A stretch of 55,292 nucleotides of DNA from Ignavibacteria bacterium. GTDB taxonomy: Bacteria > Bacteroidota > Ignavibacteria > Ignavibacteriales > Melioribacteraceae. The stretch covers positions 1 through 55,292 of the forward strand of contig JAAYAN010000119.1 of the NCBI GenBank assembly GCA_012719345.1, in the 5' to 3' direction. Below, in pieces: positions 14,495 to 41,266 of this stretch; positions within the stretch are counted from its first letter, which is position 1, and each line of letters starts with the position of its first letter. The translations under genes and the position numbers were made by a program. Under the pieces are notes generated by a model. That model did not search any database, was not told the DNA's origin, and saw only the letters and a program-made list of their open reading frames with translations.

Positions 14495-15472
14495 TCATTC
14501 TTCGTTAAATATAAATATTCCTTTCTTTAAAGAACACATCCAAATATTATTATGTCTGTCAGCTGCAACCGAAAAAATATATTCATTCTGCAAAGGTGAA
14601 TTGCCTGGGGTGAAAATTTTTATTTTATCACCTTTAAGAACAGCTACACCATTTCCAAAAACGGAAATCCAAATATTCTCATCGTTAGATTCTACTATCG
14701 AATAAATCCGCGAAGATTTCAATCCGGAGTTGGAAGTATTTAAAATTTTCCAGTTTTCATCGTTCCGGATTGCAAGTCCGGAATATTTATATCCGGCATA
14801 AACTTTATTTTTTCTGGTTACACACAACGAATAAACGCTGCTTTGCGGCAAATCGGGAAAAGTACCCCAAACACCATCGGTTAAATTGCACAATCCATTT
14901 ATTGTGCCGATCCAAAGAGTATTGCTGCTGTCAACAGCTAAAGATGGAATTTTATTACCTAACAGCGGAGAGTTGTTTGAATTAAATACACTGAATGTTT
15001 TACCGTCAAATTTCGCAAGGCCGCCTCCCCAGGTACCGATCCAGATATTTCCGCTTTTATCTTCGGCAAGCGAGTAAATGGTATCATCCGGCAGACCTGA
15101 ATTATTTTTAGAAAAAAGCTTTATTGAATCATCCCAAATTTTAACCAATCCTCCGCCAAATGTACCAATCCATTTAGTGTCTTCTCTTGATACAAGGATT
15201 GTATAAATACGGTTATCTTTGAAATTTACTGTATCATTTTTATAATGCTGCCAATTTCCATTTTTTAAAACGGAAAGTCCCTCTCCATATCCAGCTATCC
15301 AGGCGTAGCCATTTTTATCGAAAGCAACTGCCCGGACGGAATTGCCTGGCAGACCTGAATTTTCTGCAGTCAGATTTTCCCACTTAGCTGAAGAATTATC
15401 TCCGCTTGAAGTGCATCCGTAAAAGGATAAAAGAAAAATAATTAAAACTAAAACTGCAATAAATTTTTTCAT
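14495..15472 (-). CDS. Lipoprotein with two-component-regulator-type propeller (Reg_prop) repeats
   Basis: This 325-residue protein has a lipoprotein signal with the lipobox FYGC at about residues 17-20. The rest consists of about six to seven propeller repeats of roughly 40 residues, each with a variant of SGLPGNSVRAVAFDKNG and WIGTWGGGLAKF. In Bacteroidota such repeats usually form the periplasmic sensor of hybrid two-component systems; here they stand alone on a lipid anchor, with no kinase. It starts 6 bp after the LTA-synthase-like gene on the same strand, so they are very likely one operon. A scaffold or ligand-binding role in the envelope is plausible but not shown. Confidence 0.82.
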   Translation of the reverse strand: MKKFIAVLVLIIFLLSFYGCTSSGDNSSAKWENLTAENSGLPGNSVRAVAFDKNGYAWIAGYGEGLSVLKNGNWQHYKNDTVNFKDNRIYTILVSREDTKWIGTFGGGLVKIWDDSIKLFSKNNSGLPDDTIYSLAEDKSGNIWIGTWGGGLAKFDGKTFSVFNSNNSPLLGNKIPSLAVDSSNTLWIGTINGLCNLTDGVWGTFPDLPQSSVYSLCVTRKNKVYAGYKYSGLAIRNDENWKILNTSNSGLKSSRIYSIVESNDENIWISVFGNGVAVLKGDKIKIFTPGNSPLQNEYIFSVAADRHNNIWMCSLKKGIFIFNEE

Positions 15473-15478
15473 AAAAGA

Positions 15479-17497
15479 TTATTTACTGCTGTTTTTTGAA
15501 GACAGTCTTTCCGGAATGAACTGCTTGTTATTTTTTATTTGCCATTGTGCAGTTTGAAGATTCACTTTTGCGTATTCCTCCATTTCGGCAGAAATATCCG
15601 GTAAAGAATCGTAATAATTGGTTTTATCGGCAGATTTGTATTTATAAAGTGATTTTAATCCGTTATCTCTTACAATCAAGAAATAATCGCTGTTGAGCAC
15701 ACCGTATTTATCATCTGCCGAAAAATAAATATACGGACGTTTTTCTTTGAAAAGATCAATCCCCAAAGTGTTATTAGTGTAGCTGAAATTTAAAATACCC
15801 ATCAGTGTAGGAAAAATATCTATCTGTCCGGCAATGGAAGTATTTATTTGTCCTTCCGGAAAAAGAGCGGGACAATAAATAATAAAAGGGGAATGATGAT
15901 ATTCAAGAGGCATATCGTACTCAGCTTTCCTAACAGCTCCGTGATCGGCTGTAAAAACAAAAATTGTGTTTTTAAACCAATTTTGTTTTTGTGCGGATTT
16001 AATAAACCGGCTTATTGACCAGTCGGCATATTCTACAATTTTTTCTTCATCCTTATTGGATTTCGGCTTAAAATAATCTGGAATTATAAAAGGCTGGTGA
16101 TCGCTTGCTGTCATATAAACGGCAAGAAACGGGTCCCCTTTTTTGCTGTAATTATTAAGGTAAGGAATTGAAAAATTGAAAAGGTAATCATCGCATACGC
16201 CAAGGGTGCTTTTAATTCTTTCGGCTGGATAATCATCCTGCGAAATAACTTCACTAAAATCGTTTAATTTTAAAAATCCTTCGGCATTATCAAACTGTCC
16301 GTCGTGCGTTGTAAAATAAACAGATGAGTAACCGTAATTTTTAAGCGCGCTGCTTATTCCGTTATATTTTTTCATTGCAGAACCTTTCATTGGGTGCTGC
16401 CTGAAAATAGCGGGATAAGAAAAAAGTGTGCTGAAAATTCCGTTGAAAGTATGAATTCCTGCAGTATAATAATTATTAAAAATGCAGCTTTTATTTGAAA
16501 TACTGTCGAGAAAAGGAGTAAGATTTTTTTTATTACCGAACCAGCCCATTTTAGAAGAGCTCATACTTTCCATTATTACAATTACAACATTGAATTTTTT
16601 CTGTGGCAAACCAGATAGGTTTTTTATTTCCCGTGCAATCGGATATTCGCTGTTTACAGTTTTGTAGTTTAAATATTCCCGGAATTTTTTAAGCGCGTCT
16701 TTTTCATCATAAATGCTTATGAATGCGTTTTCTGGTTTCGAAGCATCAAGATAACTGCGGAGGAAAGTAAAAACAGGATTTAATCCTAGTTGGTTTAGAA
16801 ATGCATCGTTTGAGAAATATGCGGTTCCAACCTGAATAGGGGCTTTAAAAGCTATGCGTCCTCTTATTGCCAGAAATATTACAAGAAAAAATAATATTGA
16901 AACCAAAGCATTTTTAAGATAAAACAAAGCCGGATGAGAATTTGTTTGTTTGTTTTCTTTAAAAATTAAAGATAGTCTTTTTATAAAAAAGAAAACAAAA
17001 ACAAGAAAAGGAATTATGTAAAGCCAATATAAAGGTGTTTGAATTATCATTTTAAACATAAATGCCGGACTTTCAATCCACTCGAAAACAGATACCGTAA
17101 GTCGCGAAAAAAAATGGTTGAAATAAGGAATATCAATTGAACAGATTAAGAAGGCAAGCGAATACATTACCGATAAATAAATAACAAGCACTTTATCGAT
17201 TGCGGGAATCCTTCGTTTAAAAAATGAAAGTGAAGTCATTATTAAAAAGGGAAGAATTAAAATATAGCCCGAAATAACAGTATCAAAACGAAATCCCATA
17301 AAAAAAGCCTGTAAAGCAAGGGGAAATTTATCGTTGCCGGCATTAGTAAATTTTTCATTTTCTGTTAGAAAAAGTATGATTCGGAAAATTGTAAAAACCA
17401 GCATACCTGATAAATAAACTTTTAATATTTTTTGGATATGATTGTAAGAATTTAAGAATTTAATAAGAAACTTCCTTAATTTAAAAAGCGATAACAA
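15479..17497 (-). CDS. LTA-synthase-like membrane sulfatase-fold phosphotransferase
   Basis: This 672-residue protein has five hydrophobic segments in the first ~230 residues and then an extracytoplasmic sulfatase/alkaline-phosphatase-fold domain. VVIVIMESMSSSKMGW supplies the metal-binding Glu, the IHTFNGIFSTL segment matches the nucleophile-threonine region of LtaS-type enzymes, and VFTADHGA is the C-terminal metal motif. Such proteins transfer phosphoglycerol or phosphoethanolamine from phospholipids to lipoteichoic acid or glycans (LtaS, MdoB/OpgB). A Gram-negative needs no LTA, so a glycan, lipid A or another surface molecule is the likelier acceptor. The start is TTG 17497; a downstream ATG at residue 32 would leave all membrane segments. 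It is divergent from the cassette at 17537, with only 39 bp between. Confidence 0.85.
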   Translation of the reverse strand: MLSLFKLRKFLIKFLNSYNHIQKILKVYLSGMLVFTIFRIILFLTENEKFTNAGNDKFPLALQAFFMGFRFDTVISGYILILPFLIMTSLSFFKRRIPAIDKVLVIYLSVMYSLAFLICSIDIPYFNHFFSRLTVSVFEWIESPAFMFKMIIQTPLYWLYIIPFLVFVFFFIKRLSLIFKENKQTNSHPALFYLKNALVSILFFLVIFLAIRGRIAFKAPIQVGTAYFSNDAFLNQLGLNPVFTFLRSYLDASKPENAFISIYDEKDALKKFREYLNYKTVNSEYPIAREIKNLSGLPQKKFNVVIVIMESMSSSKMGWFGNKKNLTPFLDSISNKSCIFNNYYTAGIHTFNGIFSTLFSYPAIFRQHPMKGSAMKKYNGISSALKNYGYSSVYFTTHDGQFDNAEGFLKLNDFSEVISQDDYPAERIKSTLGVCDDYLFNFSIPYLNNYSKKGDPFLAVYMTASDHQPFIIPDYFKPKSNKDEEKIVEYADWSISRFIKSAQKQNWFKNTIFVFTADHGAVRKAEYDMPLEYHHSPFIIYCPALFPEGQINTSIAGQIDIFPTLMGILNFSYTNNTLGIDLFKEKRPYIYFSADDKYGVLNSDYFLIVRDNGLKSLYKYKSADKTNYYDSLPDISAEMEEYAKVNLQTAQWQIKNNKQFIPERLSSKNSSK

Positions 17498-17536: not shown

Positions 17537-18130
17537 ATGAAATTATTTAACAAAATTATAAATTTCGCTGTATTTAATTTCAGAAAACATATTTTCTCTG
17601 TTAATAAAATTATAGAAGCAGAGTTCAATTTAACAAAATCCATAAGAGAAATTGAACCTTCAATAAAAATAAATTGCGAAAAAATTTCAAAATCTCATCT
17701 CGGAAAATTATCGGCTAATCTGCCGCCAAATAAAATAGAAAAAATGAAAAGACGGTTAAACAAGGATTTTTACGGCTTTGCTCTTATAACAGAATCCGGT
17801 AAAATTGCTTCGTACGGTTGGATTACATTTAAGGATGATTACGATTCATCAACCGGAATATTAATGAAGGCAACATCCGAAACTGCAATATTTATTGATG
17901 CTTTTACCTTTCCGGAATTCAGGGGCAAAAAACTGCAATCTTATTTAACGGCAAGACGTTTGGAGTTATTAAAAAGTATGAATTATAAAAAATGCATTGC
18001 AGCATATCTTGATGATAACTGTTTTTCTAGGAAAAATTTCATTTCGGCTGGTTTTTCGGAAACTTTCAAATGGACAGTTATAAATCTATTTGGTTATAAA
18101 AAAGCAATAAAATATAAAATTAAAGATTAA
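17537..18130 (+). CDS. GNAT-family N-acetyltransferase (cassette gene 1)
   Basis: This 197-residue protein has a GNAT core in its second half: IASYGWITF (strand 4 region), IFIDAFTFPEFRGKKLQSYL (the acetyl-CoA pyrophosphate loop, here FRGKKLQ in place of R/QxxGxG/A), and a final strand near GFSETFKW. The first ~60 residues are basic and hydrophobic and may touch the membrane. It shares the unusual FTFPEFR segment with the GNAT protein at 20439, so the two are paralogs. It is the first gene of a tight + strand cassette and is divergent from the LTA-synthase-like gene. The acceptor is unknown; an amine on a surface-polymer precursor is an inference. Confidence 0.75.
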   Translation: MKLFNKIINFAVFNFRKHIFSVNKIIEAEFNLTKSIREIEPSIKINCEKISKSHLGKLSANLPPNKIEKMKRRLNKDFYGFALITESGKIASYGWITFKDDYDSSTGILMKATSETAIFIDAFTFPEFRGKKLQSYLTARRLELLKSMNYKKCIAAYLDDNCFSRKNFISAGFSETFKWTVINLFGYKKAIKYKIKD

Positions 18131-18196
18131 AAATATTTTATTAGAACTTCATTTCATAAATTTCGGTAAACCATTTATTATTTTTCGGAAAACAAT

Positions 18197-19327
18197 TTGC
18201 TCAGCAAAATAATTACGTTATTAATTCACCTTCGAAGAGACGTAAAAGAAATACCAGAAATTTTAAGTTTTGCAAGAAAAACATCCAGCAGTTATAAAAA
18301 CTCTTTTATGCTTAATCTTTGCAGGTCTCTCTGGCTGAAATATAAACATAATTTTTCGCCCAAGGAATACTTCTATCACGGTTATCTTGCTCCGGAAAAT
18401 TTCAAGGATAAGAAAAAGGAATTTATCAGCCGTAAAAAACTTTCGGAGATGCAGCTTAAAATCAATCCTGCCGGATACAAACTTTTAACTGAAGACAAAT
18501 CGTATTTCCATAAATTTTGTAAATCGGCAAACCTGCCTGTCTCAGATTTTTACGGCGTTTATCTGCGGCAGTTTTACGGAACAGACGGATCCGGAAACAT
18601 ATTAAATGGGGAAAAAAAATGGCAAGAATATTTATCGGAAAAAGTAAACGGCGGTTTTGTAATTAAACCTATAAACGGCGCTTACGGAAAAAGTATTTCG
18701 GCTTTTACAAATACAAACGGAGTTATCAAAGACATTAACGGGAATACTATATCGGCTGGAAATATTTTCGATTTGATGAACTGTGATAAAAAGTATAAAA
18801 GTTTTGTTATAGAAAAAAGACTTTTTGCCTGTGCAAAATTATCCGAGATGCTTGGATCGGATAATCTTCACACTTTAAGATTAATTACTTTTGCAAACTC
18901 CGCTGAAAATGCGGAGATATTATCGGCAGAGCTTAAAATTGTAAAAGGGAAAAATTTTGCTGCAAATATCGATTTCGGCTCTACCGGAAATTTAATCTCG
19001 CAAGTGGATTTAAATACTGGCGGACTTGTAAATTTAATTAAGTGCAATCAGGAAAGCGGGCAAAATATTTTTTTAGATAAAATTCCTTCTGCCGGATTGA
19101 ATATTACCGAAGTATTTATCCCTCAATTTAACGAAGCAAAAAAATTGGCGCTGAATGCAGCAAAAATATTTCTTCCCATAAGGTATATCGGTTGGGACAT
19201 TGCTGTTACCGATGAAGGAGTTTTTTTGCTTGAAGGAAATATGTATTTCGATTTTCCTACAAGCGAAGAGGAATATAAGAAAATAAGAAAAAAATTTGCG
19301 CAAATTATAAACGATTATAATAAATGA
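18197..19327 (+). CDS. ATP-grasp ligase, sugar-transfer-associated type (cassette gene 2)
   Basis: This 376-residue protein fits the ATPgrasp_ST group, which is related to alpha-L-glutamate ligases and found near polysaccharide genes. FVIKPINGAYGKSI (about 154-167) is the nucleotide-binding loop, FVIEKRL and HTLRLITF follow, and IGWDIAVTDEG plus LLEGN are the Mg-ATP carboxylate motifs near residues 334-352. ATP-grasp enzymes activate a carboxylate as acyl phosphate to form an amide. TTG 18197 is chosen as start because it aligns with the start of the next gene: MLSKIITLL versus MSIAKIILKL. The stop overlaps the next start by 4 nt. Confidence 0.8.
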   Translation: MLSKIITLLIHLRRDVKEIPEILSFARKTSSSYKNSFMLNLCRSLWLKYKHNFSPKEYFYHGYLAPENFKDKKKEFISRKKLSEMQLKINPAGYKLLTEDKSYFHKFCKSANLPVSDFYGVYLRQFYGTDGSGNILNGEKKWQEYLSEKVNGGFVIKPINGAYGKSISAFTNTNGVIKDINGNTISAGNIFDLMNCDKKYKSFVIEKRLFACAKLSEMLGSDNLHTLRLITFANSAENAEILSAELKIVKGKNFAANIDFGSTGNLISQVDLNTGGLVNLIKCNQESGQNIFLDKIPSAGLNITEVFIPQFNEAKKLALNAAKIFLPIRYIGWDIAVTDEGVFLLEGNMYFDFPTSEEEYKKIRKKFAQIINDYNK

Positions 19328-20442
19328 GTATTGCGAAAATAATATTGAAGTTGCGACATTTTAAACGCGATTGCGGATATGTTTCCGAATTGTTGAAACT
19401 TTCATTTTCTGAAAGCACCAATTACTTGAATCCGCCGCATAAAATATTCCCTCACGGCTTAAAATTGCTTTTTAAATATCGTTTTACCCCTTATTTTGCA
19501 AAAGATCTCGGAATTCTTAATCCTTCAACTGATATAAAGTTGATTGAAAAACTGATCAGCCGCGAAAGATTTTCCGAAATCCAGCTTAAAATCAATCCTC
19601 TTGAATTTACACCGCTTACCGAAAATAAAGGTCTGTTTTATCATTTTTGCCGCTTGAATAAAATTCCTTATCCCGAAGTTTATGCAGAATATTTTAAGGA
19701 TTCATCCGGAATTATTAAAGATTTTAACGGAATACCAAAAGAAACCGATTGGATTGAGTGGTTTGAAAATAAAAGTCCCGACGAAATTGTTATCAAACCT
19801 CATTTGGGTGTTTACGGACACGGAATTCTTCCGGTAAAAAGGTTAAAAAACAAACTTTACGATTTTTCTGGAAAGGAATTGCTGCCTGATACAATAATTG
19901 ATTTTATGAAAAATAATAAAGAATTTAAAAGTTTTGTAATTCAGGAAAGATTGAAAGCGCATAAAAGTCTGAAATTATTAACCGAGAACGAAAATATCTC
20001 ATCTGTTCGAATAGTAACCTTAATTGATAAAAACGATGATGTAAAAATATTGTATGCAGCCGTAAAGCTTGTATCGGGCAAAAATTTTATAGATAACCAC
20101 GAAAGAGGTTCTACCGGAAATGTTATTGCTTTACTTGATATTTCGAATGGAGAAATTCAGACTGCGTTTTGTGCTGCAGATAAACTTGGCAAAGCAGGCG
20201 AAGTAAAGTTTCATCCAATAAGCGGAAAAGAGATTATAGGCGTTAGAATACCGATGTGGAGCGATCTTGTTAATACGGTAAAATTTGCCGCTTTAAAATT
20301 CAAACCTTTGCGTACTGCAGGCTGGGACGCAGCAGTGACTGATGACGGAATTAAAATTCTGGAAGGAAATGCATTGTTCGATCCGCCGAATTTTTTCAGT
20401 AAAGGACGGTTTATTGAAAAAGAATTGTTGGAAAATCAATGA
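19324..20442 (+). CDS. ATP-grasp ligase, paralog of the preceding gene (cassette gene 3)
   Basis: This 372-residue protein is a paralog of the upstream ATP-grasp enzyme along its full length. Shared landmarks include ISRERFSEIQLKINP, IVIKPHLGVYGHGI, FVIQERLKAH, VRIVTLID, and AGWDAAVTDDG with ILEGN at the C-terminus, so the ATP and metal residues appear intact in both. Two different ligases in tandem suggest two successive amide-forming steps or two substrates. ATG 19324 overlaps the upstream TGA as ATGA, and its own stop overlaps the next ATG in the same way, indicating translational coupling. Confidence 0.8.
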   Translation: MSIAKIILKLRHFKRDCGYVSELLKLSFSESTNYLNPPHKIFPHGLKLLFKYRFTPYFAKDLGILNPSTDIKLIEKLISRERFSEIQLKINPLEFTPLTENKGLFYHFCRLNKIPYPEVYAEYFKDSSGIIKDFNGIPKETDWIEWFENKSPDEIVIKPHLGVYGHGILPVKRLKNKLYDFSGKELLPDTIIDFMKNNKEFKSFVIQERLKAHKSLKLLTENENISSVRIVTLIDKNDDVKILYAAVKLVSGKNFIDNHERGSTGNVIALLDISNGEIQTAFCAADKLGKAGEVKFHPISGKEIIGVRIPMWSDLVNTVKFAALKFKPLRTAGWDAAVTDDGIKILEGNALFDPPNFFSKGRFIEKELLENQ

Positions 20443-21008
20443 TAAGTAAAATTATTTATGCACTAATTTTTCTGTTCAAAAAATATATTTACTTTCAAAA
20501 GTATTTTACAGTGGGAGTTGTTAATCTTAATTCAATTTGTCCGGACAAAGATTTTACGGGCAATTTTGAAATTGAGGAGATAGACTGTAAAGATAACCTC
20601 GGTTTAATTATGCCCGATGAAAAATTAGTTAGAAAATATTACTACCGTTGCAAGAGAAATATGAAATGTTTTGTTTGCAAAGTTAATGATAAAATAGCGG
20701 GAATATCTTGGATTTCTTTTTCCAGAAAATTTAACGAAGGTGTAAAAATAAATATGAGTTCTAAAGATGCTTTGCTCTTGGAATCGTTTACATTTCCTGA
20801 ATTCAGAAATAGGGGAATTCAGAAAGCACTTATTCAAACAAGACTTCTATGGCTTAAGTGTAACAATTTTGAACGAGTATTTGTAATTTACGAGCCGGAT
20901 AATATTTATTCCGAAAAAGCTCTGATGCGTAATGATTTTGCAGTTTATAAAAGATTGAAAGTTTTTAGAATAATCGGTTTCTATTTCCAAAAAAATGCAG
21001 AGTTGTGA
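20439..21008 (+). CDS. GNAT-family N-acetyltransferase, paralog of cassette gene 1 (cassette gene 4)
   Basis: This 189-residue GNAT protein resembles the first gene of the cassette: IAGISWISF, LLLESFTFPEFRNRGIQKAL and then a helix LIQTRLLWLK. Here the acetyl-CoA loop is closer to the classical form (RNRGIQKAL). The N-terminal 25 residues are hydrophobic and basic as in the paralog and could be a membrane-associating helix. ATG 20439 overlaps the stop of the ATP-grasp gene. The acceptor cannot be read from the sequence. Confidence 0.75.
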   Translation: MISKIIYALIFLFKKYIYFQKYFTVGVVNLNSICPDKDFTGNFEIEEIDCKDNLGLIMPDEKLVRKYYYRCKRNMKCFVCKVNDKIAGISWISFSRKFNEGVKINMSSKDALLLESFTFPEFRNRGIQKALIQTRLLWLKCNNFERVFVIYEPDNIYSEKALMRNDFAVYKRLKVFRIIGFYFQKNAEL

Positions 21009-21010
21009 AA

Positions 21011-22108
21011 ATGATAAAAATTAAAAGAGTTGATAATGTTACAGACTTTTACAGTTTAGAAAAGATATGGGAAGATTTGCTTGAAGAATGTCCGGATAAG
21101 CACATTCAGCTATCGTTTGACTGGTGCCGGACATGGCTGGACGTTTTTGGAAAAAAAACTGAATTATTTGTACTTATTGCCGAAAATGGTGATGAAATTT
21201 TAGGGATTGCTCCTCTGGTAATTGTAAAAAACGGTTCATTTTTCGGAAATTCCTTAAAATACCGGCAAGTAGTTTTTATCGGTACAGGTTTTACCGACCG
21301 TTCTGATTTTATAATAAAAAAACACAACGAAGAAATAATAAGAGAGTTTTTCAGTTATATTTATCAAAGCATAAATTTGTGGGATGAATTAGACCTTAGA
21401 CAGATTAATACATTGTCATCAAATTTCGAACTGATAAAAAAGTATTCGCAAAGCAGTCTGATAAACGAGCATAAATTTTTCAAAGTAATTAACACCCCTT
21501 ATCTGCCTATTGAAGGCGATTTTGAAACCTACTTAAGCGGACGAGCTAAATTATTCCGAAAACAATTGCGAATGTACACAAACAATTTAACAGAAGATGG
21601 TAAAACGCTCGATTTTGAAGTAATAACAGAAGTAAAAGATGAGCATATCAATTTGATAATTGAAATGGCTGAATACAGAAAATCACTTTTCGAACGGAGG
21701 AATATTTTTCTTGAAAAACAGAAGTTTGATTTCATACAAAAAATGATACCGCTGTTTAACAAAAAAAACAGGATATTTCTTTTTTTCCTTAAATACGAAG
21801 GCAAATTGTTAAGTTATGATTTTACTTTCAGTTACAATAAAACTGTATATGATTGGAATACATCCTATAATCCCGACTTTAAAAAATATTCTGTTGGCAG
21901 GCTTTTGAATAAATTTATTATAGAATATTGTTTTGCAAACGGGTATAAAGTTTATGATCTTATGGCGGGGGATGAGGACTATAAACTAAAATGGACAAAG
22001 GTTTTTAGCGAAAATTATAATTTGCGGGTAAGGAAAAAGAATATAAAATTTTCTATAGCAAACTATTATGAAAAAGTTAAAAAAATGGTAAAGAAAACTA
22101 ATGTTTAA
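21011..22108 (+). CDS. FemAB/BioF2-like GNAT-fold acyltransferase (cassette gene 5)
   Basis: This protein of 365 residues matches the Acetyltransf_6 (BioF2-like, FemAB-related) group, which is frequent in exopolysaccharide loci and transfers acyl or aminoacyl groups. An N-terminal GNAT-like half ends near residue 160. The C-terminal half carries YDWNTSYNPDFKKYSVGRLL and YKVYDLMAGDEDYKLKW, which match the family's conserved end segments. ATG 21011 is listed; GTG 21005 in the same frame would overlap the previous stop by 4 nt, as elsewhere in the cassette, and is an equal alternative. Its stop lies 8 nt inside the flippase gene. Confidence 0.78.
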   Translation: MIKIKRVDNVTDFYSLEKIWEDLLEECPDKHIQLSFDWCRTWLDVFGKKTELFVLIAENGDEILGIAPLVIVKNGSFFGNSLKYRQVVFIGTGFTDRSDFIIKKHNEEIIREFFSYIYQSINLWDELDLRQINTLSSNFELIKKYSQSSLINEHKFFKVINTPYLPIEGDFETYLSGRAKLFRKQLRMYTNNLTEDGKTLDFEVITEVKDEHINLIIEMAEYRKSLFERRNIFLEKQKFDFIQKMIPLFNKKNRIFLFFLKYEGKLLSYDFTFSYNKTVYDWNTSYNPDFKKYSVGRLLNKFIIEYCFANGYKVYDLMAGDEDYKLKWTKVFSENYNLRVRKKNIKFSIANYYEKVKKMVKKTNV

Positions 22109-23576
22109 CGATCTTAAAAAGTTGTTGAATCAATCTTTTATATACGGAATCAGCTCTGTAATAGAACCGTTTATCAGATTTATAATGTTGCCGCTTTACA
22201 CACGCTATCTTACTCCTGAAGATTACGGGACACTGGCTCTTACCGGCGTTGTGGGAATGTTTCTTTCTTCTGTAATTGGGCTTGGGGTTTCTTCGGGAAT
22301 GCTGAGGTTTTATTTCCAGTATAAAACTAAGGAAGAAAAGGATGAAGTTATAACGACGGTTATGATTTTTACAATCATATCTTCAGCTTTATATTTAACG
22401 GTGCTTCTTGCAATAGAACCTTTTGTTTCGGGAATTTTGTTTTCAATAGAAAATTCGGGGGTGTACTATAACCTTGTAATTGGGGGGACAGTTCTTGAAA
22501 TTGCTGCAAACCGGCTTTATTCAGTTTTTAGGGCAGAAGAAAAAGTTAAAATATTTACAACATTTACAATTACATCGCTTATAATGCAGTTTTTGCTGAA
22601 TATACTTTTTGTAGTTGTTTTTGAGCGCGGTGTAAGAGGAATACTTGAAGCAACAATTATTTCTACAATATTCAGCATATTTTTACTTATGCCTTCAGCA
22701 ATTAAAGGCAAAAAAATGCGATTTTCTAAAACCAAACTGAAAGAAATCCTTTCATTCAGTGCGCCTCTTGTACCGGCTGCAATTTCGCATATTGTACTAA
22801 ATCTTTCAAACAGATACTTCCTCGATTATTTTATATCGAAACGCGGAGTAGGAATTTTTCAGCTTGGCGTAGGAATATCGAATGTCCTTTCAATTGCAAT
22901 AACTAAACCATTTAAAATTGCCTGGCCCCCTTATATGTACAGCGTTTCCGATAAACCAAATGCAAAAGATATTTATAGAAATGTGCTTGTTTACTATTCT
23001 TTTTTAGCATTTTGGGCAGCAATGGCAATTTCGGTAGCAGCAAAAGAAACCCTTGTAATATTAACAACTCCGCCATTTTATTCTGCCTATAAAGTTGTTC
23101 CTTTGCTTGTTGTTTCGCTGGTTCTGTTCGGGATGATGGGAATTCTTGTAGCGGGAATTCATCTTACTAAAAAAACAAAATACGTGTCATATATTTTTAT
23201 GGTTGCAGCAATTATAAATCTTGCGCTCAATTTTATTTTAATTCCGTTCGGCGGAGTTCAGGGGGCGGCACTTGCAACCGTAATAACATTCCTTTTTCTG
23301 AATATTTGTTACTTTGTTTATTCCCAAAGACTTTATCCGATAAATCACGATTTCAGAAGACTGTCAATAATTGTATTCGTTTCTTCTGCTTTGTTTCTTT
23401 TCTCGCATTTCTTTATTACAGCTGATAATTTATTTCTAACCATTCCATTGAAAGGTTTAATTATAATTTCTTTCCCGTTTATTTTATGGCTGGTAGGTTT
23501 TTTTAATCCAAACGAAAAGGATAGAATAATTTATATAGCAAGGCTCATCTATCATAAAATCCTCAGAAAAAAATAA
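22101..23576 (+). CDS. Wzx-like polysaccharide flippase, MOP superfamily (cassette gene 6)
   Basis: This 491-residue integral membrane protein has about 12-14 hydrophobic segments. The start SFIYGISSVIEPFIRFIMLP and TRYLTPEDYGTLAL is characteristic of polysaccharide-biosynthesis flippases (Wzx/RfbX), which move undecaprenyl-linked intermediates across the inner membrane. It is the last gene of the cassette and overlaps the acyltransferase by 8 nt. No glycosyltransferase, Wzy polymerase, Wza or Wzc is next to it, so its cargo is either made elsewhere or is not a conventional polysaccharide. It could also carry a lipid-linked peptide. Confidence 0.88.
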   Translation: MFNDLKKLLNQSFIYGISSVIEPFIRFIMLPLYTRYLTPEDYGTLALTGVVGMFLSSVIGLGVSSGMLRFYFQYKTKEEKDEVITTVMIFTIISSALYLTVLLAIEPFVSGILFSIENSGVYYNLVIGGTVLEIAANRLYSVFRAEEKVKIFTTFTITSLIMQFLLNILFVVVFERGVRGILEATIISTIFSIFLLMPSAIKGKKMRFSKTKLKEILSFSAPLVPAAISHIVLNLSNRYFLDYFISKRGVGIFQLGVGISNVLSIAITKPFKIAWPPYMYSVSDKPNAKDIYRNVLVYYSFLAFWAAMAISVAAKETLVILTTPPFYSAYKVVPLLVVSLVLFGMMGILVAGIHLTKKTKYVSYIFMVAAIINLALNFILIPFGGVQGAALATVITFLFLNICYFVYSQRLYPINHDFRRLSIIVFVSSALFLFSHFFITADNLFLTIPLKGLIIISFPFILWLVGFFNPNEKDRIIYIARLIYHKILRKK

Positions 23577-23653: not shown

Positions 23654-24520
23654 ATGATACACCGTGTTGCCAGATTGTTTGATAAGGTTCAGAATGATGC
23701 AGAAGTTGCAAAATGGATCAGAGTATTTTCGCGTACCGACAGAAATTTTGCTGTCATCAAAATAAGCGGAGCTTCACTTTTTCAGTATCCTAATGAAATA
23801 TGCGAAGATCTGGCTATTTTATCAAAGCTTGATTTGCACGTTCCAGTAGTTTACGGATGGGGAAATGCTCTTACAAAAAAACTTGAACTTGCGGGTCAGA
23901 AAACACTTATGCATCACACAGGTGTCCGCGTTACGCGAAAAAGCGATCTCATTTTTATGGAAGAAGTAGCACACGAGCACGGAATGATGATTGTTGAAGG
24001 ATTAAACGAAAGAGGAATTCCTGCAGAAATTGCTTTGGATATTTTTTCAGCAGAAAGAAAACCGCTTGACGGAATTGATTTCGAGCATTTTACAGGTGAA
24101 ATTAAAAATGTAAATACCGATAAATTGAAGGAATACTTGTGTAAAGGAATTATTCCGGTTATTCCGCCGATTGGCAAAAATGAAGCAGGACAAATATTTA
24201 ATATTAATGCAGATACCGCTGCAAAAGCCATTGTTCTTGATCTTATTCCTCAAAAATATATCCTTTTAACAAATACCCGCGGAGTGCTTGATAAAAGTGG
24301 CGAATTAATATCCCAAATTTCTATTTCTGCTGATTATTTAAACCTTGTTGAACAAGGAATAATTAACGAAGGAATGAAATTAAAAATTGACGAAGCGAAA
24401 GAAATAATAGAAGGAATGGCGCATCTCGAAGAAGATATTGCTGTTCAGATTGCCAATCCCGAAAACATTTTAAGCGAGCTCTTTACCGACGGCGGAAAAG
24501 GAACATTTGTTAAAAAGTAA
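23654..24520 (+). CDS. Amino-acid kinase-family protein, acetylglutamate-kinase-like
   Basis: This 288-residue protein has the amino-acid kinase fold. It resembles the kinase half of bifunctional N-acetylglutamate synthase/kinase and fungal ARG5,6-type enzymes more than classical ArgB. The first motif is VIKISGASL (Lys36) where ArgB has KxGG; VVYGWGNALTKKL replaces the HGGG substrate loop; FNINADTAAKAIV and LLTNTRGVLD are the usual C-lobe segments; and EGMKLKIDEAKEI replaces the GGM.PK motif. The GNAT domain of the fusion enzyme is absent. No arginine-pathway gene is near. N-acetylglutamate phosphorylation is the best guess; another small acylamino-acid substrate is possible. Confidence 0.7.
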   Translation: MIHRVARLFDKVQNDAEVAKWIRVFSRTDRNFAVIKISGASLFQYPNEICEDLAILSKLDLHVPVVYGWGNALTKKLELAGQKTLMHHTGVRVTRKSDLIFMEEVAHEHGMMIVEGLNERGIPAEIALDIFSAERKPLDGIDFEHFTGEIKNVNTDKLKEYLCKGIIPVIPPIGKNEAGQIFNINADTAAKAIVLDLIPQKYILLTNTRGVLDKSGELISQISISADYLNLVEQGIINEGMKLKIDEAKEIIEGMAHLEEDIAVQIANPENILSELFTDGGKGTFVKK

Positions 24521-24602: not shown

Positions 24603-26045
24603 TCAGTCCTCATTTATAATTTTCTGCATCCTGAATGCGCGCGGGTATTGGCTTTTTAAACCTTCTTTAGTATTTACGGCAGTTCCTATAAATTTCCCGT
24701 TATGCTTTATTACTTTTTGCCCAGTTTCTCCGAAATCTTTTTTAATTATTCCGCCGTTCAAATAAATTTCCATTTGGTTTAAATCTTCAAGTTCAATAAA
24801 ATTTTTTGTGATATTATTCTTAAGTATCTGTGCGCCAAGAGTGTGCAGCCTTAAAGTATTCCTTTTATCAACCGAACCGAACTTTGAGCCGATACGAAGA
24901 AAAATATCCTGCCCGTCATATCCCCAATCCTTGTTCACAAAATAGAAATCCTCCGATTTTACAAGATATTTGTACTCTAGTAAAACTGTTTTTTTAATTC
25001 CGTACCATTCAGCCAGCTCATTTAAATAACCCGAAATCTTCCTGTTATCAACTTCAGCAAAAAATAGTTTTTCTTTTTTTGCCGGGAATGGTTTAACCGG
25101 TTCTGTGTTTCCGGTTTTTTTTAATTTTGCAACAAAAAATCCTTCCGAATCAATTTCCCAGGGAATAATCCTTCGGGCTTTAGAAATTGATTCATTAAAA
25201 CTTATTCCGCTAAACTCTTTATAAGTATCCGATGATTTAACAGGAAGATTTATTTCAACCATTTCTACAGGATATTTATTTAAAATTTGATTAAGTACAA
25301 GCTCGTTTTCTTCAATTGTTAGAGTGCAGGTGGAGTAAACAATTTCGCCGCCGGGTTTCAACATTTTAATAGCGGAAACCAAAAGTTTATGCTGTATTTC
25401 GGAAAGCGCCGCTGCGTGGTTTTCTGTCCACCAGTTATTTACCTCACCCTTTTTATGCATAATTCCCAAAGCACTGCATGGGGCATCTACAAGAATTTTA
25501 TCGAACCATTCATGAAAATAAGAACCGAGCTGCTCTCCTTTTCCTAAAATAATTCCGGCATTAGTAAAATTCATTTTATCAATATTGAATACAAGACTTT
25601 TTACGCGCGCGTTGCTTTGTTCGTTCAATATTAAAGTACCTTTGTTCTGCATCATTCCAGCAATCTGTGTGGATTTTGAGCCCGGAGCAGCGCATAAATC
25701 CAGAACTCTTTCGCCTTCCTTAGGATTTAAAACAAGCGGCGGAATCATTGAGGACAGACTTTGAATGTAATATTTTCCGAAAGAATAACTCAGCGTTTTC
25801 CCTATTTTTTCGTATCCTGTTAATACATAATATGCCAAAGGAATATTTTTAACCGGCTCCAACTCTACTCCGCAATTCTTCAATTCATCAATGATTTTGC
25901 TTGCGTCTTCCTCTGCGCTGATTCTAATGCAGGTTTTTACCGAAGGATTTTTATAATATGCACTGTACTTTTCTAAATATTTGCTTCCGAAATTTTTCAG
26001 AATATAGCTTGCAATATTTTTGCTTATTTCAATTTTCTGTATCAT
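24603..26045 (-). CDS. rsmF: RsmB/NOP-family rRNA (cytosine-5) methyltransferase, RsmF-like
   Basis: This 480-residue enzyme methylates C5 of a cytosine in 16S rRNA using S-adenosylmethionine. The SAM motif is VLDLCAAPGSKSTQIAGMM, motif IV is VDAPCSALG and motif VI is YSTCTLTIEENE, supplying the two cysteines of the m5C mechanism. After the catalytic domain (about 90-310) comes a C-terminal region of ~150 residues of the RsmF-like PUA/FAE type, with FYFVNKDWGYDG and LRLHTLGAQIL. The family has several members; RsmF is preferred over RsmB because there is no N-terminal NusB domain. It is the last gene of a four-gene operon with lgt. Confidence 0.82.
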   Translation of the reverse strand: MIQKIEISKNIASYILKNFGSKYLEKYSAYYKNPSVKTCIRISAEEDASKIIDELKNCGVELEPVKNIPLAYYVLTGYEKIGKTLSYSFGKYYIQSLSSMIPPLVLNPKEGERVLDLCAAPGSKSTQIAGMMQNKGTLILNEQSNARVKSLVFNIDKMNFTNAGIILGKGEQLGSYFHEWFDKILVDAPCSALGIMHKKGEVNNWWTENHAAALSEIQHKLLVSAIKMLKPGGEIVYSTCTLTIEENELVLNQILNKYPVEMVEINLPVKSSDTYKEFSGISFNESISKARRIIPWEIDSEGFFVAKLKKTGNTEPVKPFPAKKEKLFFAEVDNRKISGYLNELAEWYGIKKTVLLEYKYLVKSEDFYFVNKDWGYDGQDIFLRIGSKFGSVDKRNTLRLHTLGAQILKNNITKNFIELEDLNQMEIYLNGGIIKKDFGETGQKVIKHNGKFIGTAVNTKEGLKSQYPRAFRMQKIINED

Positions 26046-26476
26046 TAATACCGGTGAAGAAATAGTGAATTGAAAATTGTATTTGCCGCTTCAAAAAAGT
26101 TTTTCTTTTCAGGAAATTCGTTTCTGAATGATTTAATTATTTCTCCCAGAAGCCCGTCCAGATATTTTTCGTATTGTTTCACTGTCCTTTCCAAATCCTT
26201 TTTTCCCACAGGAATCATAAGCTTTGAAGGCATTGTTCTGTTTGAATAAAGTATATATTTCGCCTGAAAAATATCTTCAGCCTGAAAAACTTTTTCGCCT
26301 TTCATATCAACCAGTTCGTAACTGCCAAAAAGTTCGGAGCCCAAAACTAAAGTCTTTGCCGGCAAATCGATTTCATAACAATTATCCGAATTTACAAAAT
26401 CTTCGGGGAACTTTTTTAAATTTCCGTTGCGTAAATCGAATACCCAGTTGTGAATAAAATCTTTTTCAGTCATCAT
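26045..26476 (-). CDS. Hypothetical protein in the lgt-rsmF operon
   Basis: I do not recognise this 143-residue protein. It is cytoplasmic with no signal or membrane segment. The first half appears beta-rich (IDLPAKTLVLGSELFGSYEL) and the second half helical (KKDLERTVKQYEKYLDGLLG). Its stop overlaps the RsmF-like start by one base (TAATG), and lgt lies 11 bp upstream, so it is co-transcribed and probably translationally coupled to the methyltransferase. Confidence 0.7.
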   Translation of the reverse strand: MMTEKDFIHNWVFDLRNGNLKKFPEDFVNSDNCYEIDLPAKTLVLGSELFGSYELVDMKGEKVFQAEDIFQAKYILYSNRTMPSKLMIPVGKKDLERTVKQYEKYLDGLLGEIIKSFRNEFPEKKNFFEAANTIFNSLFLHRY

Positions 26477-37733: not shown

Positions 37734-39185
37734 TTACATAAAGATTTTTTGTACTGCCTGCAGATTCTTTTTATTGATCAGTATCGAAAGAATATCTCCT
37801 TCTTCTAAAACAGTTCCTCCGCTAGGTACTATATTTTTTTCATCTCGGATTATCAATACAATCCGGCTGTCGGCAGGAAAGTTTATATCAACAATTTGTT
37901 TTCCGGCAATAGAAGAATTAAAAGGGACTATCAATTCGATTAAATCGGTGTCGCTATCTGTAGCTGACGAAAATTCCAGAGAGAGTTTCTTTTTAAGCTG
38001 AAGCGGAGCGGAAAGTTTAAGCCATTTTGCAACCGGATTTATAGACCATCCTTGGATTGTTGCAGAAGAAAGGACAACAAAAAATACTAAATTAAAAATC
38101 AGGTGCGAGTTTTCCACCCCTTTTAATAATGGAAAAGTTGCTAAAATAATAGGTACTGCTCCCCGTAACCCTACCCAGGATATAAACATTTTTTCTTTCA
38201 GATTAAACTTAAACGGTATAAGAGTAATAAAAACGCTTAAAGGTCTGGCAACAAGCATTAAAATCAAACTTAACAGAATTCCCGAACCTGTAACTAATAA
38301 TAATTCGGAAGGGAAAAGCAATAAACCCAACGTTAGGAACATCGAAATTTGTCCAAGCCAGGCAAAACCGTCAAAAAAACCAATTAATGCTTTTTTATGT
38401 ATAAATTGCTGATTGCTCATTATTAAACCGGCTATATAAATTGCAAGAAAGCCGCTGCCGTTTAACAAAGTTGTAAATGAATAAAGGAGAATAACTAACG
38501 CAAGCAGCAAAACAGAATAAATCCCTTCGTAAAAAAACTTAAGTTTATTTATAAATAATACAATCAGTTTCCCGCCTAAAATGCCAAAAACTAACCCGAG
38601 TCCTATCTGAAGAAAGAAAAATAAAACTAAATCGGAAATCGATTTATCGGGCGCCATAATAAGTTCTATCGTCCCGATTGTAAGAAATACTGCCATAGGA
38701 TCGTTGCTTCCGGACTCAAGTTCAAGCAGCGGTTTCACTGTTCCCTTTAGTCCTATATTACCGGTTCGCAAAATTGAAAAAACTGCTGCGGCATCTGTAG
38801 AAGAAATAATTGAACCGATAAGCAAACCCCAAAGGAAGGAAGTTTTAAAAATAACAGTTACAAAAAAGGCAATTACAAGTGCAGTTATAAGAGTTCCTAA
38901 AGTTGCCATCAAAAAAGCCGGCACCGATACAATTTTCGATTCCTTCCAATTTGTATCCAATCCGCCCGAAAATAGAATAAAAATAAGCGATAAAATACCG
39001 ATAGACTGTGCCATTGATGCATCGCTGAACTCTATTCCGCCCAAACCTTCGGAGCCTGCAAGAATTCCAACACCAATAAATAGCAGTAAAGTAGGTATTC
39101 CTACATTTTGCAGCGCTTTTGCTGTAAGTATGCTCACCAATAGAAGTATGCTGCCAATTAATAGAAGATATTCGAGACTTACCAT
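37734..39185 (-). CDS. Potassium/proton antiporter, CPA1 NhaP2/CvrA type, with TrkA-C domain
   Basis: This 483-residue inner-membrane protein has about 12 hydrophobic segments (to about residue 390) and a C-terminal cytoplasmic TrkA-C-like domain (about 400-483: LIELIVPFNSSIAGKQIVDI and VLEEGDILSILI). SIISSTDAAAVFSIL is the conserved ion-binding Asp region of the NhaP group and GLRGAVPIILATFPLL is typical of NhaP2. It exchanges K+ (or Na+) for H+ in pH and osmotic control. It is divergent from a second, CPA2-type antiporter 109 bp away. Confidence 0.9.
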   Translation of the reverse strand: MVSLEYLLLIGSILLLVSILTAKALQNVGIPTLLLFIGVGILAGSEGLGGIEFSDASMAQSIGILSLIFILFSGGLDTNWKESKIVSVPAFLMATLGTLITALVIAFFVTVIFKTSFLWGLLIGSIISSTDAAAVFSILRTGNIGLKGTVKPLLELESGSNDPMAVFLTIGTIELIMAPDKSISDLVLFFFLQIGLGLVFGILGGKLIVLFINKLKFFYEGIYSVLLLALVILLYSFTTLLNGSGFLAIYIAGLIMSNQQFIHKKALIGFFDGFAWLGQISMFLTLGLLLFPSELLLVTGSGILLSLILMLVARPLSVFITLIPFKFNLKEKMFISWVGLRGAVPIILATFPLLKGVENSHLIFNLVFFVVLSSATIQGWSINPVAKWLKLSAPLQLKKKLSLEFSSATDSDTDLIELIVPFNSSIAGKQIVDINFPADSRIVLIIRDEKNIVPSGGTVLEEGDILSILINKKNLQAVQKIFM

Positions 39186-39294: not shown

Positions 39295-41266
39295 ATGAAT
39301 CAATTCGATATTATTCAGGATATTGTTCTTATTCTATTGGTTGCACTGCCAATAATATACATTTTTAAAAAAATTAATATGCCTGCAATAGTCGGATTTC
39401 TTATCTCAGGAATAATCATCGGGCCTTATGGATTTGCTTTAATGAAAAATCCTGACGGTATTGAAGTAATGGCAGAAATCGGCGTAATTTTACTTTTATT
39501 TACCATCGGTCTCGAAGTATCTTTTACCCAGCTGATAAAAATTAGGAAATTTCTTCTTATTGCCGGAGGCATTCAAGTTGCAGGAACTATACTTATTGCT
39601 GCATTAATCTTAAGCTCGATAGGGTTATCTTCCGGAACTTCAATCTTTATCGGGATGCTGGTGCCTTTCGAGTACAGCAATTGTATTAAAAATCCTTTCA
39701 GAAAGGCAGGAACTGCGAGCTCCGCACGGGAAAATATCCCTTGGTATTTTGATTTTTCAAGATTTGATAATTGTCCCGATGTTCCTTTTACTTCCTATTT
39801 TAGGCGCAACTGAGCCATTAAGTTTTAAAGAAATTATATTGAAAATGCTTTTTGCTTTTGGAACTTTAGCAGGATTATTATTGCTTGCAAAATTCCTTAT
39901 GCCTAAAATAATGTACATACTTGCAGGAATAAGATTGCGCGAAGCATTTACTACAGGTACAATACTTATTTTACTCGGGACTGCATATCTTACTCATTCG
40001 TTCGGATTATCTTTTGCTCTTGGAGCATTTATAGCCGGACTTATACTTGCTGAATCGGAATATAATTCGCAAATTATTTCTGATATTCTTCCACTAAAAG
40101 ATACTTTTAACAGCATATTTTTCGTATCTGTGGGAATGCTGTTAAATCTTGAACTTGTTTTAGAAAATCCTTTATTCATTTTAATTGTTACAGCTGCAGT
40201 AATTATTTTCAAATCATTTATAATTACAATAATTGTTCTTTTTCTCAGATATCCTTTACGCATAGCTTTGCTTACAGCACTAGGATTATCGCAAATAGGG
40301 GAGTTTGCGTTTGTGCTTTCGCAGGCGGGAAGTAAAACTGGACTTTTCGATAATCAGCTTTATAATATATTTCTTGCATCTTCAATATTTACAATGATAC
40401 TTGCGCCTTTTCTTATAAAACTTGCTCCCAAACTTGCATTTGCTTCAAGCAGTCTTGTACCGGTAAGAGAAAACGGTGAAGATGAAGAAACGAAGAATCT
40501 GACCGGGCAAGTTGTAATTGCAGGTTTCGGACTTAACGGAAAGAACTTGGCAAGGGTTCTTAAACAAACAGGAATAAGATATATTGTTACCGAATTGAAT
40601 CCGGATACTGTTAAAATTGAAAAAGCCAATAACGAAAAAATAATTTTCGGAGATATAAGCAAAGAAGAAGTGCTTCATCAGGTTCACATCGAAAATGCAA
40701 GCGTGCTTGTGTTCACAATATCCGATCCTATTACTACCAGGCGGTCGTTGTATACTGCAAAACGAATAAACCCTAAAATATTTACGGTAGTGCGTACAAG
40801 ATATCTTAATGAAATAGAGGAATTGAAAAAATTAGGCGCGGATGCAGTAATTCCTGAAGAATTTGAAACATCGCTGGAAATATTCAGAAATGTGTTGGAG
40901 AGATACCACATTCCGCTGAATGTTATAATGCAGCAAACATCAATTCTCCGAAGCGAATCTTACAGTCTTTTGCGTAACGATGAATCTGCCGCATCTTTTA
41001 TTCATCTCGATGAAATACTTGCACAGGGTTTAACGGAAACCTTTTTTGTAAATCAGGATAATCCTAATGCAGGAAGACTTCTTAGCGAAATTCATTTGCG
41101 GGAGCATTCCGATGCAACTATAATTGCAATAGTGCGCGACGGTAAAACAATTTCCAATCCAACAGGAAAGCAGAAAATACTTATCAACGATACACTTGTT
41201 ATTACAGGCACGCACAAATCGGTTGATGCGGCTATTAATATTTTAAGCGGGAGTGCAAATGATTGA
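39295..41266 (+). pseudogene. Kef-type CPA2 cation/proton antiporter with TrkA-N/TrkA-C domains, frameshifted
   Basis: Two frames make one Kef-like protein of about 658 residues. From ATG 39295 the frame reads normally to IFIGMLV (39661-39663), then becomes foreign until a stop at 39813. The other frame, from about 39665, continues the family exactly: LSSTAIVLKIL, then HGKISLGILIFQDLIIVP, with further membrane segments (ALGAFIAGLILAESEYNSQ), a TrkA-N Rossmann domain (VVIAGFGLNGKNLARVLK) and TrkA-C to 41266. After GTG only one base precedes CTT where three are expected (Val-Ala-Leu), so two bases are missing (or one is extra). There are no other defects. It is a recent mutation, recoding, or a sequence error. 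If intact, it exports K+ or Na+ in exchange for H+. Confidence 0.88.

What the first reader, a model, noticed from the sequence alone, without database searches (positions are those of the whole stretch)
17537..23576. Six-gene GNAT/ATP-grasp/acyltransferase/flippase cassette with no glycosyltransferase
Seen directly: six + strand genes, five joined by overlaps of 4-8 nt or by short gaps (only genes 1 and 2 are 66 bp apart), encode GNAT, two ATP-grasp ligases, GNAT, a FemAB/BioF2-like acyltransferase and a Wzx-like flippase. Known: ATPgrasp_ST and BioF2-like proteins occur in exopolysaccharide loci, and Wzx moves lipid-linked intermediates. The absence of any glycosyltransferase, polymerase or export porin is unusual. 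Inference: the cassette makes an amide/acyl-rich lipid-linked or peptide-like surface molecule, or modifies a glycan made elsewhere, and flips it across the inner membrane.
Basis: partly seen in the sequence, partly recalled or inferred. Interest (0 to 1): 0.68.

Follow-up and report, generated by a model that had tools for sequence, protein, structure and literature searches.

The report
Amide-forming flippase cassette lacking glycosyltransferases
Six adjacent genes in an uncultured Melioribacter-like bacterium appear to encode enzymes that add acyl or amino-acid groups by amide bonds to a lipid-linked surface molecule, most likely a sugar chain built by genes elsewhere, together with a pump that flips it across the inner membrane.

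Summary
In detail: six + strand genes (GNAT, ATP-grasp, ATP-grasp, GNAT, FemAB/BioF2-like, Wzx-like) with the stated spacing. The 55-kb contig was scanned and holds no recognisable glycosyltransferase, polymerase, initiating transferase or exporter. New here: the first four genes are two paralogous GNAT+ligase pairs (ligases 34% identical, GNATs 27%), and a same-family Melioribacter MAG carries one such pair. The ligases form a supported subclade of ATPgrasp_ST, scattered over five phyla and mostly away from glycosyltransferases. The six-gene order was found in no other genome. But the flippase and the FemAB protein have their best matches, among sequences examined, in canonical sugar loci of the same genome: a Wzx (46-49%) beside Wzz, glycosyltransferases and a WecA-like enzyme, and a FemAB (27%) beside two GT4 enzymes. 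GNAT-FemAB adjacency recurs in glycosyltransferase loci of other genomes, and one acidobacterial XrtA-type locus joins Wzx, ligase, ATP-grasp, GNAT, FemAB and glycosyltransferases. Best reading: a 'decorate and flip' satellite acting on a lipid-linked glycan made elsewhere. A sugar-free, peptide-like lipid-linked product is not excluded. Substrates are unknown. New variant of a known kind.

The parts
17537..18130 (+). GNAT-fold acyltransferase 1 (197 aa), divergent acyl-CoA motif (FRGKKLQ)
   Evidence: no significant Pfam match; paralogue of gene 4, 27%, E 5e-17; AlphaFold model pLDDT 82 matches GNAT structures
18197..19327 (+). ATP-grasp ligase 1 (ATPgrasp_ST subclade), TTG start
   Evidence: PF14397 E 8e-34; 34% to ligase 2; subclade in tree
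19324..20442 (+). ATP-grasp ligase 2 (ATPgrasp_ST subclade), ATP-grasp fold of the carboxylate-amine ligase kind
   Evidence: PF14397 E 3e-36; model pLDDT 88; VIA-align Z 17.1 to ArgX, 16.9 to RimK, about 16 to LysX and Ddl
20439..21008 (+). GNAT acyltransferase 2 (189 aa), motif FRNRGIQ
   Evidence: PF00583 E 8e-6; 39% over 121 aa to the Melioribacter BM5_bin.15 GNAT next to a ligase
21005..22108 (+). FemAB/BioF2-like acyltransferase (Acetyltransf_6), GTG start
   Evidence: PF13480 E 3e-25; best match of those examined is own-genome C250 gene beside two GT4, 27% over 347 aa
22101..23576 (+). Wzx-like MOP-superfamily flippase (491 aa)
   Evidence: PF13440 E 3e-17; HfsF model 3e-18 but below its cut-off; 46/49% to a Wzx split over contigs C82/C133 in a canonical EPS locus of the same genome
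23654..24520 (+). acetylglutamate-kinase-like protein 77 nt downstream; doubtful member of the operon
   Evidence: AA_kinase 9e-22; acetylglutamate kinase models 3e-53, below cut-off; the only such match in this genome
15479..17497 (-). divergent membrane phosphoglycerol-transferase/LTA-synthase-like sulfatase; doubtful member
   Evidence: Sulfatase PF00884 1e-40; phosphoglycerol transferase I model 2e-15, below cut-off

Best explanation
The cassette is a probably horizontally acquired 'decorate and flip' module for a surface molecule. In the cytoplasm two GNAT + ATP-grasp pairs build amide-linked substituents: the ATP-grasp enzyme activates a carboxylate as an acyl phosphate and joins it to an amine, and the GNAT acylates an amine. 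The FemAB-like enzyme adds a further acyl or aminoacyl group. The acceptor is most likely an aminosugar- or uronic-acid-bearing, undecaprenyl-linked glycan (or its nucleotide-sugar precursor) assembled by glycosyltransferases encoded on other contigs, and the Wzx-like protein flips the decorated lipid-linked unit to the periplasm. Shown: gene content, paralogy, folds, and glycan-locus homologues of Wzx, FemAB and GNAT. Inferred: acceptor, donor groups, order of steps, horizontal origin, and partnership with a distant glycosyltransferase set.
For: Wzx has a 46-49% identical homologue whose halves (aligning to query 1-264 and 263-476) abut at the ends of contigs C82 and C133. That locus also has Wzz, GT4 enzymes, a weakly matching Wzy and a WecA-like PF00953 protein. 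FemAB's best own-genome relative lies beside two GT4 genes, a PIG-L-type deacetylase and NDP-sugar genes, and another of the five PF13480 places lies beside a GT4 (C187). The order GNAT then FemAB recurs in glycosyltransferase loci of three other phylum genomes (L099, L100, L102). An acidobacterial contig (L095/L225) carries FemAB (TIGR03019), an XrtA-type GT, a Wzy-like protein, Wzx (29%, 6e-74), a subclade ligase, deacetylases and a weak ATP-grasp + GNAT pair. Same-order genome G091 has two FemAB + ATPgrasp_ST in a GT-rich locus. The ligase fold is that of carboxylate-amine ligases. Precedents: VimA, a putative N-acetyltransferase, is inferred to put Ser or Gly on a sugar amine in T9SS linking sugars (PMC7468200); HfsK, FemX-like, modifies holdfast polysaccharide on indirect evidence (PMC5362036). 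Patchy occurrence: 4 of 146 relatives with a ligase-2 match, own genome included. None of 20 relatives has the cassette beside the conserved RsmF-Lgt block.
Against: No sugar-handling enzyme recognised in the window. The close ligase subclade lies near a glycosyltransferase in only 2 of 7 loci, and elsewhere near radical SAM, HPr-kinase-like or sulfotransferase genes, or alone. The genome has five other PF13440 places, most with glycosyltransferases of their own, so no particular glycan is assigned. The six-gene order is seen in one MAG only. No substrate evidence exists.
Confidence: 0.55

Rival explanations
1. A sugar-free or nearly sugar-free lipid-linked peptide/amide surface molecule: the two ligase/GNAT pairs and the FemAB enzyme make a short N-acylated peptide on a membrane carrier, and the Wzx-like protein flips it.
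For: No sugar enzyme in 55 kb. All five enzymes are of amide- or acyl-transfer families. The ligase fold is closest to ArgX/RimK/LysX/Ddl, which ligate amino acids. Subclade ligases occur near radical SAM and HPr-kinase-like genes. FemX-type enzymes transfer amino acids.
Against: Wzx, FemAB and GNAT relatives sit in glycan loci. No carrier-transfer enzyme and no carrier protein was recognised. Wzx-like flippases are known for lipid-linked glycans.
Confidence: 0.2
2. Ordinary remnant or fragment of a larger polysaccharide locus, left after rearrangement and possibly without present function.
For: Homologues of all component types occur together in larger EPS loci (L225; L065). Cassette GC is 32.3%, below the range of 33.3-37.3% of same-size windows in the rest of the contig, as expected of transferred surface loci.
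Against: All six genes are intact with tight overlaps; no fragments of other polysaccharide genes were found nearby; the two paralogous pairs point to selected expansion rather than decay.
Confidence: 0.17
3. An anchor or linking-sugar pathway of the type IX secretion kind (VimA-like amino acid transfer to a linking sugar).
For: VimA is a putative N-acetyltransferase that determines addition of Ser or Gly to the linking sugar (PMC7468200). A propeller protein with a weak PorZ match (65 bits, cut-off 260) lies at 14495-15472.
Against: No Wbp genes recognised in the window; the Vim pathway as described has no ATP-grasp ligases; the PorZ match is below cut-off; the cassette is rare in the family, whereas a core secretion part should be common. 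VimA homology was not tested.
Confidence: 0.05
4. A small-molecule (siderophore- or antibiotic-like amide) biosynthesis cluster with a MATE-type exporter in place of a lipid-linked flippase.
For: Gene 6 has a weak match to the MATE efflux model (2.7e-9, below cut-off); ATP-grasp and GNAT enzymes occur in such clusters (general knowledge).
Against: Gene 6 is much closer to polysaccharide flippases, including a Wzx in an EPS locus; no receptor or regulator is attached.
Confidence: 0.03

Closest known systems
Wzx/Wzy-dependent exopolysaccharide loci, including XrtA/PEP-CTERM type (TIGR03019 FemAB, TIGR03087 GT, TIGR03097 polymerase-like)
   Same: Wzx-like flippase, FemAB-like acyltransferase, ATP-grasp and GNAT genes all occur there (L225)
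   Different: Cassette has no glycosyltransferase, polymerase, chain-length or export gene and carries two GNAT+ligase pairs
Wbp/Vim linking-sugar pathway of Porphyromonas gingivalis (VimA, PMC7468200)
   Same: Acetyltransferase-type enzyme implicated in putting an amino acid on a sugar amine of a lipid-linked surface glycan
   Different: No ATP-grasp ligase described there; no Wbp genes here; homology to VimA not tested
Caulobacter holdfast genes HfsK and HfsF (PMC5362036)
   Same: FemX-like acyltransferase; cassette flippase hits the NCBIfam HfsF model at 3e-18
   Different: Flippase score 66 against a cut-off of 700; no ATP-grasp enzymes known there; no glycosyltransferases here
ATP-grasp/GNAT amidoligase systems predicted by Iyer et al. 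2009 (PMC3268129, cited in PMC12419801; not readable here)
   Same: Linked ATP-grasp and GNAT genes predicted to make peptide-like metabolites or modifications
   Different: Could not be compared gene by gene; whether ATPgrasp_ST pairs with a Wzx appear in that paper was not checked
Solved carboxylate-amine ATP-grasp ligases ArgX, LysX, RimK, Ddl
   Same: Catalytic fold, Z 16-17
   Different: 10-17% identity; an extra helical N-terminal part of about 50-75 residues; acceptor carrier or protein unknown

Membership tests
Wzx/Wzy-dependent polysaccharide locus | Wzx-type flippase | tested here: met
   PF13440 3e-17 and 46-49% to a Wzx of an EPS locus in the same genome
Wzx/Wzy-dependent polysaccharide locus | glycosyltransferases in the locus | tested here: not met
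   no Pfam GT in the scanned ORFs of the 55-kb contig; no GT4/GT2 HMM hit
Wzx/Wzy-dependent polysaccharide locus | Wzy polymerase, Wzz, exporter or initiating transferase in the locus | tested here: not met
   no matching Pfam family among the scanned window ORFs; a highly divergent Wzy could be missed
Sugar-transfer associated ATP-grasp (ATPgrasp_ST, PF14397) | score above the curated cut-off | tested here: met
   117.5 and 125.3 bits against 31.4
Sugar-transfer associated ATP-grasp (ATPgrasp_ST, PF14397) | association with sugar transfer | tested here: inconclusive
   17 of 26 wider-family loci have a GT4/GT2 gene in the fetched stretch, but only 2 of 7 loci of the close subclade
FemAB/BioF2-like Acetyltransf_6 | PF13480 match above cut-off | tested here: met
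   89.6 bits against 22
XrtA/PEP-CTERM FemAB (TIGR03019) | score above equivalog cut-off | tested here: not met
   21.3 bits against 260
HfsF holdfast flippase (NF050818) | score above equivalog cut-off | tested here: not met
   66.3 bits against 700
GNAT acyltransferase (gene 1) | GNAT fold | tested here: met
   model pLDDT 82; top Foldseek matches are GNAT structures, E 6e-7
GNAT acyltransferase (gene 1) | Q/R-x-x-G-x-G/A acyl-CoA motif | tested here: not met
   FRGKKLQ in gene 1, FRNRGIQ in gene 4; activity of gene 1 uncertain
Wbp/Vim linking-sugar pathway | VimA homology and Wbp genes | not tested
   no VimA sequence compared; no Wbp genes recognised in the window

The most novel reading that the evidence does not exclude
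A self-contained pathway in which ATP-grasp/GNAT pairs and a FemAB enzyme build a non-glycan, peptide- or polyamide-like molecule on a membrane lipid carrier, flipped by a Wzx homologue that has switched from glycan to amide cargo.
Probability: 0.15. Interest if true: 0.85.

Novelty: new variant of a known kind. Interest (0 to 1): 0.42.

Why it matters
If it is a satellite module, bacteria can change the chemistry of a surface glycan by acquiring one compact operon without touching the glycosyltransferase locus, which would matter for phage and immune recognition and for predicting surface structures from genomes. If the product has no sugar, it would be a new class of lipid-linked surface molecule and a new cargo for the Wzx family. 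Either way the two GNAT+ligase pairs give defined enzymes whose substrates can be tested directly.

Tried and rejected
(1) Same gene order elsewhere: not found in 146 relatives, 391 class, 395 phylum and 79 family genomes searched with a ligase, a GNAT alignment or PF14397, nor in the genome-contig scan. The latter used two narrow peptide patterns and is no proof of absence; no same-genus genome was listed among the relatives. (2) Sequence search of solved structures: nothing for ligase 1 or gene 4, nothing useful for genes 1 and 5. (3) PHROGs: no match for genes 1-5, so no phage origin indicated. (4) Plasmids: only distant ATPgrasp_ST (about 23-29%). One, on a Shinella plasmid, sits in a surface-molecule-like cluster with a flippase, acyl carrier protein, AMP-binding enzyme and sugar dehydrogenase; another on a Lichenicola plasmid stands alone. 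(5) Empty site: the RsmF-Lgt block is conserved in relatives without the cassette, but the sulfatase side is not, so insertion boundaries cannot be set. (6) Promoter/terminator scan uninformative: promoter-like sites 42 against 30.6 (sd 5.8) in shuffles, terminators at expectation. (7) Papers: none found that characterises ATPgrasp_ST by that name; Iyer et al. 2009 not held. (8) The acetylglutamate-kinase-like gene as part of a LysW-like (LysX/LysZ) system: considered because the ligase fold resembles ArgX/LysX; no LysW-like carrier was recognised among the neighbouring ORFs, though none was searched for specifically, so kept only as a lead.
Full report
OBSERVATION. The six genes are present at the stated places and in the stated spacing. 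Genes 2-6 overlap by 4, 4, 4 and 8 nt; 66 nt separate genes 1 and 2. Pfam confirms two ATPgrasp_ST ligases, a GNAT, an Acetyltransf_6 protein and a Wzx-type flippase. Gene 1 has no significant Pfam match but is a paralogue of gene 4 (27%, E 5e-17). Its AlphaFold model (pLDDT 82) matches GNAT structures. The 46 window ORFs examined (every principal ORF of 120 aa or more, plus two shorter ones) were scanned with Pfam: no glycosyltransferase, polymerase, initiating transferase, chain-length or exporter family was found.

The two ligases are paralogues (34%, E 2e-62) and the two GNATs are paralogues, so the first four genes are two GNAT+ligase pairs arranged GNAT-ligase-ligase-GNAT. The Melioribacter sp. 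BM5_bin.15 MAG (same family by the kinship table) carries a ligase fragment directly followed by a GNAT at a contig end; its GNAT is 39% identical to gene 4 over 121 aa and the ligase fragment 41% to ligase 2. In a maximum-likelihood tree the two window ligases and that fragment group together (88/81), the two window ligases as sisters with weak support (93/60). All lie in a nine-member subclade (98/96) with sequences from a Pelobacter MAG, a Thermoanaerobaculia MAG, Legionella parisiensis, an Acidobacteria MAG, Thioalkalivibrio denitrificans and a planctomycete. The subclade is thus rare in the genomes sampled and scattered over five phyla. Conserved ATP-grasp positions (ligase 2 numbering K158, R229, the GWD motif, E347, N349) are kept in both window ligases. 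Gene 1 has lost the glycine of the acyl-CoA motif (FRGKKLQ against FRNRGIQ in gene 4), so its activity is uncertain. Cassette GC is 32.3%, below the range of 33.3-37.3% of same-size windows in the rest of the contig.

LINEAGE. The genome is 4.02 Mb in 323 contigs and the window is one whole contig. Only 4 of 146 relatives, own genome included, have a match to ligase 2, and 10 of 391 class genomes pass E 1e-12 with the subclade profile. The RsmF-(26045-26476)-Lgt block to the right is conserved in relatives, but none of 20 has the cassette, the sulfatase-like gene or the kinase-like gene beside it. All relatives listed are other genera, so a strict empty site could not be shown.

CONTEXT OF RELATIVES. 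The wider ATPgrasp_ST family is often, not always, near glycosyltransferases: 17 of 26 loci with my HMMs. The close subclade is so in only 2 of 7 loci (short contigs and homemade HMMs make these counts approximate). Subclade contexts include a radical SAM and HPr-kinase-like neighbourhood (Thermoanaerobaculia), a radical SAM gene and a second ATPgrasp_ST (Pelobacter), ligase-GNAT-ATP-grasp-sulfotransferase (Thioalkalivibrio), a lone gene 1.4 kb from a flippase (Legionella) and a lone gene (planctomycete). The Acidobacteria contig is the fullest parallel: FemAB (TIGR03019), an XrtA-type GT, a Wzy-like protein, Wzx (29% to the cassette's), GT4, the subclade ligase, two deacetylases, and a weak ATP-grasp + GNAT pair. 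More distant tandem ATPgrasp_ST arrays stand between housekeeping genes in other phylum members.

GLYCAN LINKS. The own genome has six PF13440 places, one of them this cassette, and 26 PF00534 places, none in the window. The best match of those examined to the cassette Wzx is split over the ends of contigs C82 and C133, its halves aligning to residues 1-264 and 263-476 at 46 and 49% identity. That is most simply one gene cut by the assembly, in a locus with Wzz, GT4 enzymes, a weakly matching polymerase and a WecA-like enzyme. The best FemAB match of those examined lies on C250 beside two GT4 genes and a PIG-L-type deacetylase; one further PF13480 place (C187) is beside a GT4. GNAT followed directly by FemAB recurs in three other phylum genomes in loci that hold GT4 genes (L099, L100, L102). 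In same-order genome G091, two FemAB genes precede an ATPgrasp_ST gene in a GT-rich locus.

MECHANISM. Ligase 2 models as an ATP-grasp ligase (pLDDT 88) closest to ArgX, RimK, LysX and Ddl at Z 16-17. From knowledge of that superfamily it should activate a carboxylate as acyl phosphate and join it to an amine. GNAT and FemAB-type enzymes transfer acyl or aminoacyl groups. Published parallels are VimA, inferred to place Ser or Gly on the amine of a linking sugar (PMC7468200), and HfsK, which modifies holdfast polysaccharide on indirect evidence (PMC5362036). I therefore prefer a module that decorates a lipid-linked glycan and flips it, with the glycosyltransferases elsewhere (0.55). A sugar-free lipid-linked amide is the main rival (0.2), a remnant the next (0.17). 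No substrate is known, and none of these can be decided from sequence.

VERDICT. Real and intact; an unusual assembly of known parts. It fails the locus-level definition of a polysaccharide locus (no GT, no polymerase) but works most likely as an accessory to one. New variant of a known kind.

Noticed in passing
window 23654-24520: Acetylglutamate-kinase-like gene 77 nt after the flippase on the same strand. It is the only such match in this genome, only about 30% to relatives' versions, and no other arginine gene was recognised in the window.
   Followed up: partly
window 39295-39813 and 39749-41266: Two overlapping ORFs match consecutive parts of one Na+/H+ exchanger (PF00999), suggesting a frameshifted or split gene; another exchanger lies at 37734-39185 on the opposite strand.
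   Followed up: no
window 15479-17497: Membrane sulfatase/LTA-synthase-like protein divergently transcribed 39 nt from the cassette; a possible phosphoglycerol or phosphoethanolamine transferase for the same surface molecule.
   Followed up: no
L061 7247-13363, L062 7602-10180, L063 3-4240: Arrays of two to five tandem ATPgrasp_ST genes set between housekeeping genes, without GT4/GT2 genes by HMM; the flanking gene order is conserved between L061 and L062 while array length differs. Function unexplained.
   Followed up: partly
L099 8278-10750, L100 8925-11470: Conserved trio: GINT1_N-like protein, GNAT, FemAB-like protein (37-41% identical between two phylum genomes) inside exopolysaccharide loci.
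   Followed up: partly
L093 5156-9104, L092 6792-11213: Subclade ATP-grasp ligases near related radical SAM genes (23%, E 7e-10), in L093 with an HPr-kinase-like gene; resembles peptide-modification clusters.
   Followed up: no
L250 1283-11612 (Shinella plasmid): ATPgrasp_ST in a cluster with a flippase, acyl carrier protein, AMP-binding enzyme, PLP enzyme and nucleotide-sugar dehydrogenase: another amino-acid-activating surface-molecule locus.
   Followed up: no
L202 14429-15233 and L208 17027-17719: Own-genome contigs C82 and C133 end in what look like the two halves of one Wzx gene, so they are probably adjacent and together form one large EPS locus.
   Followed up: partly
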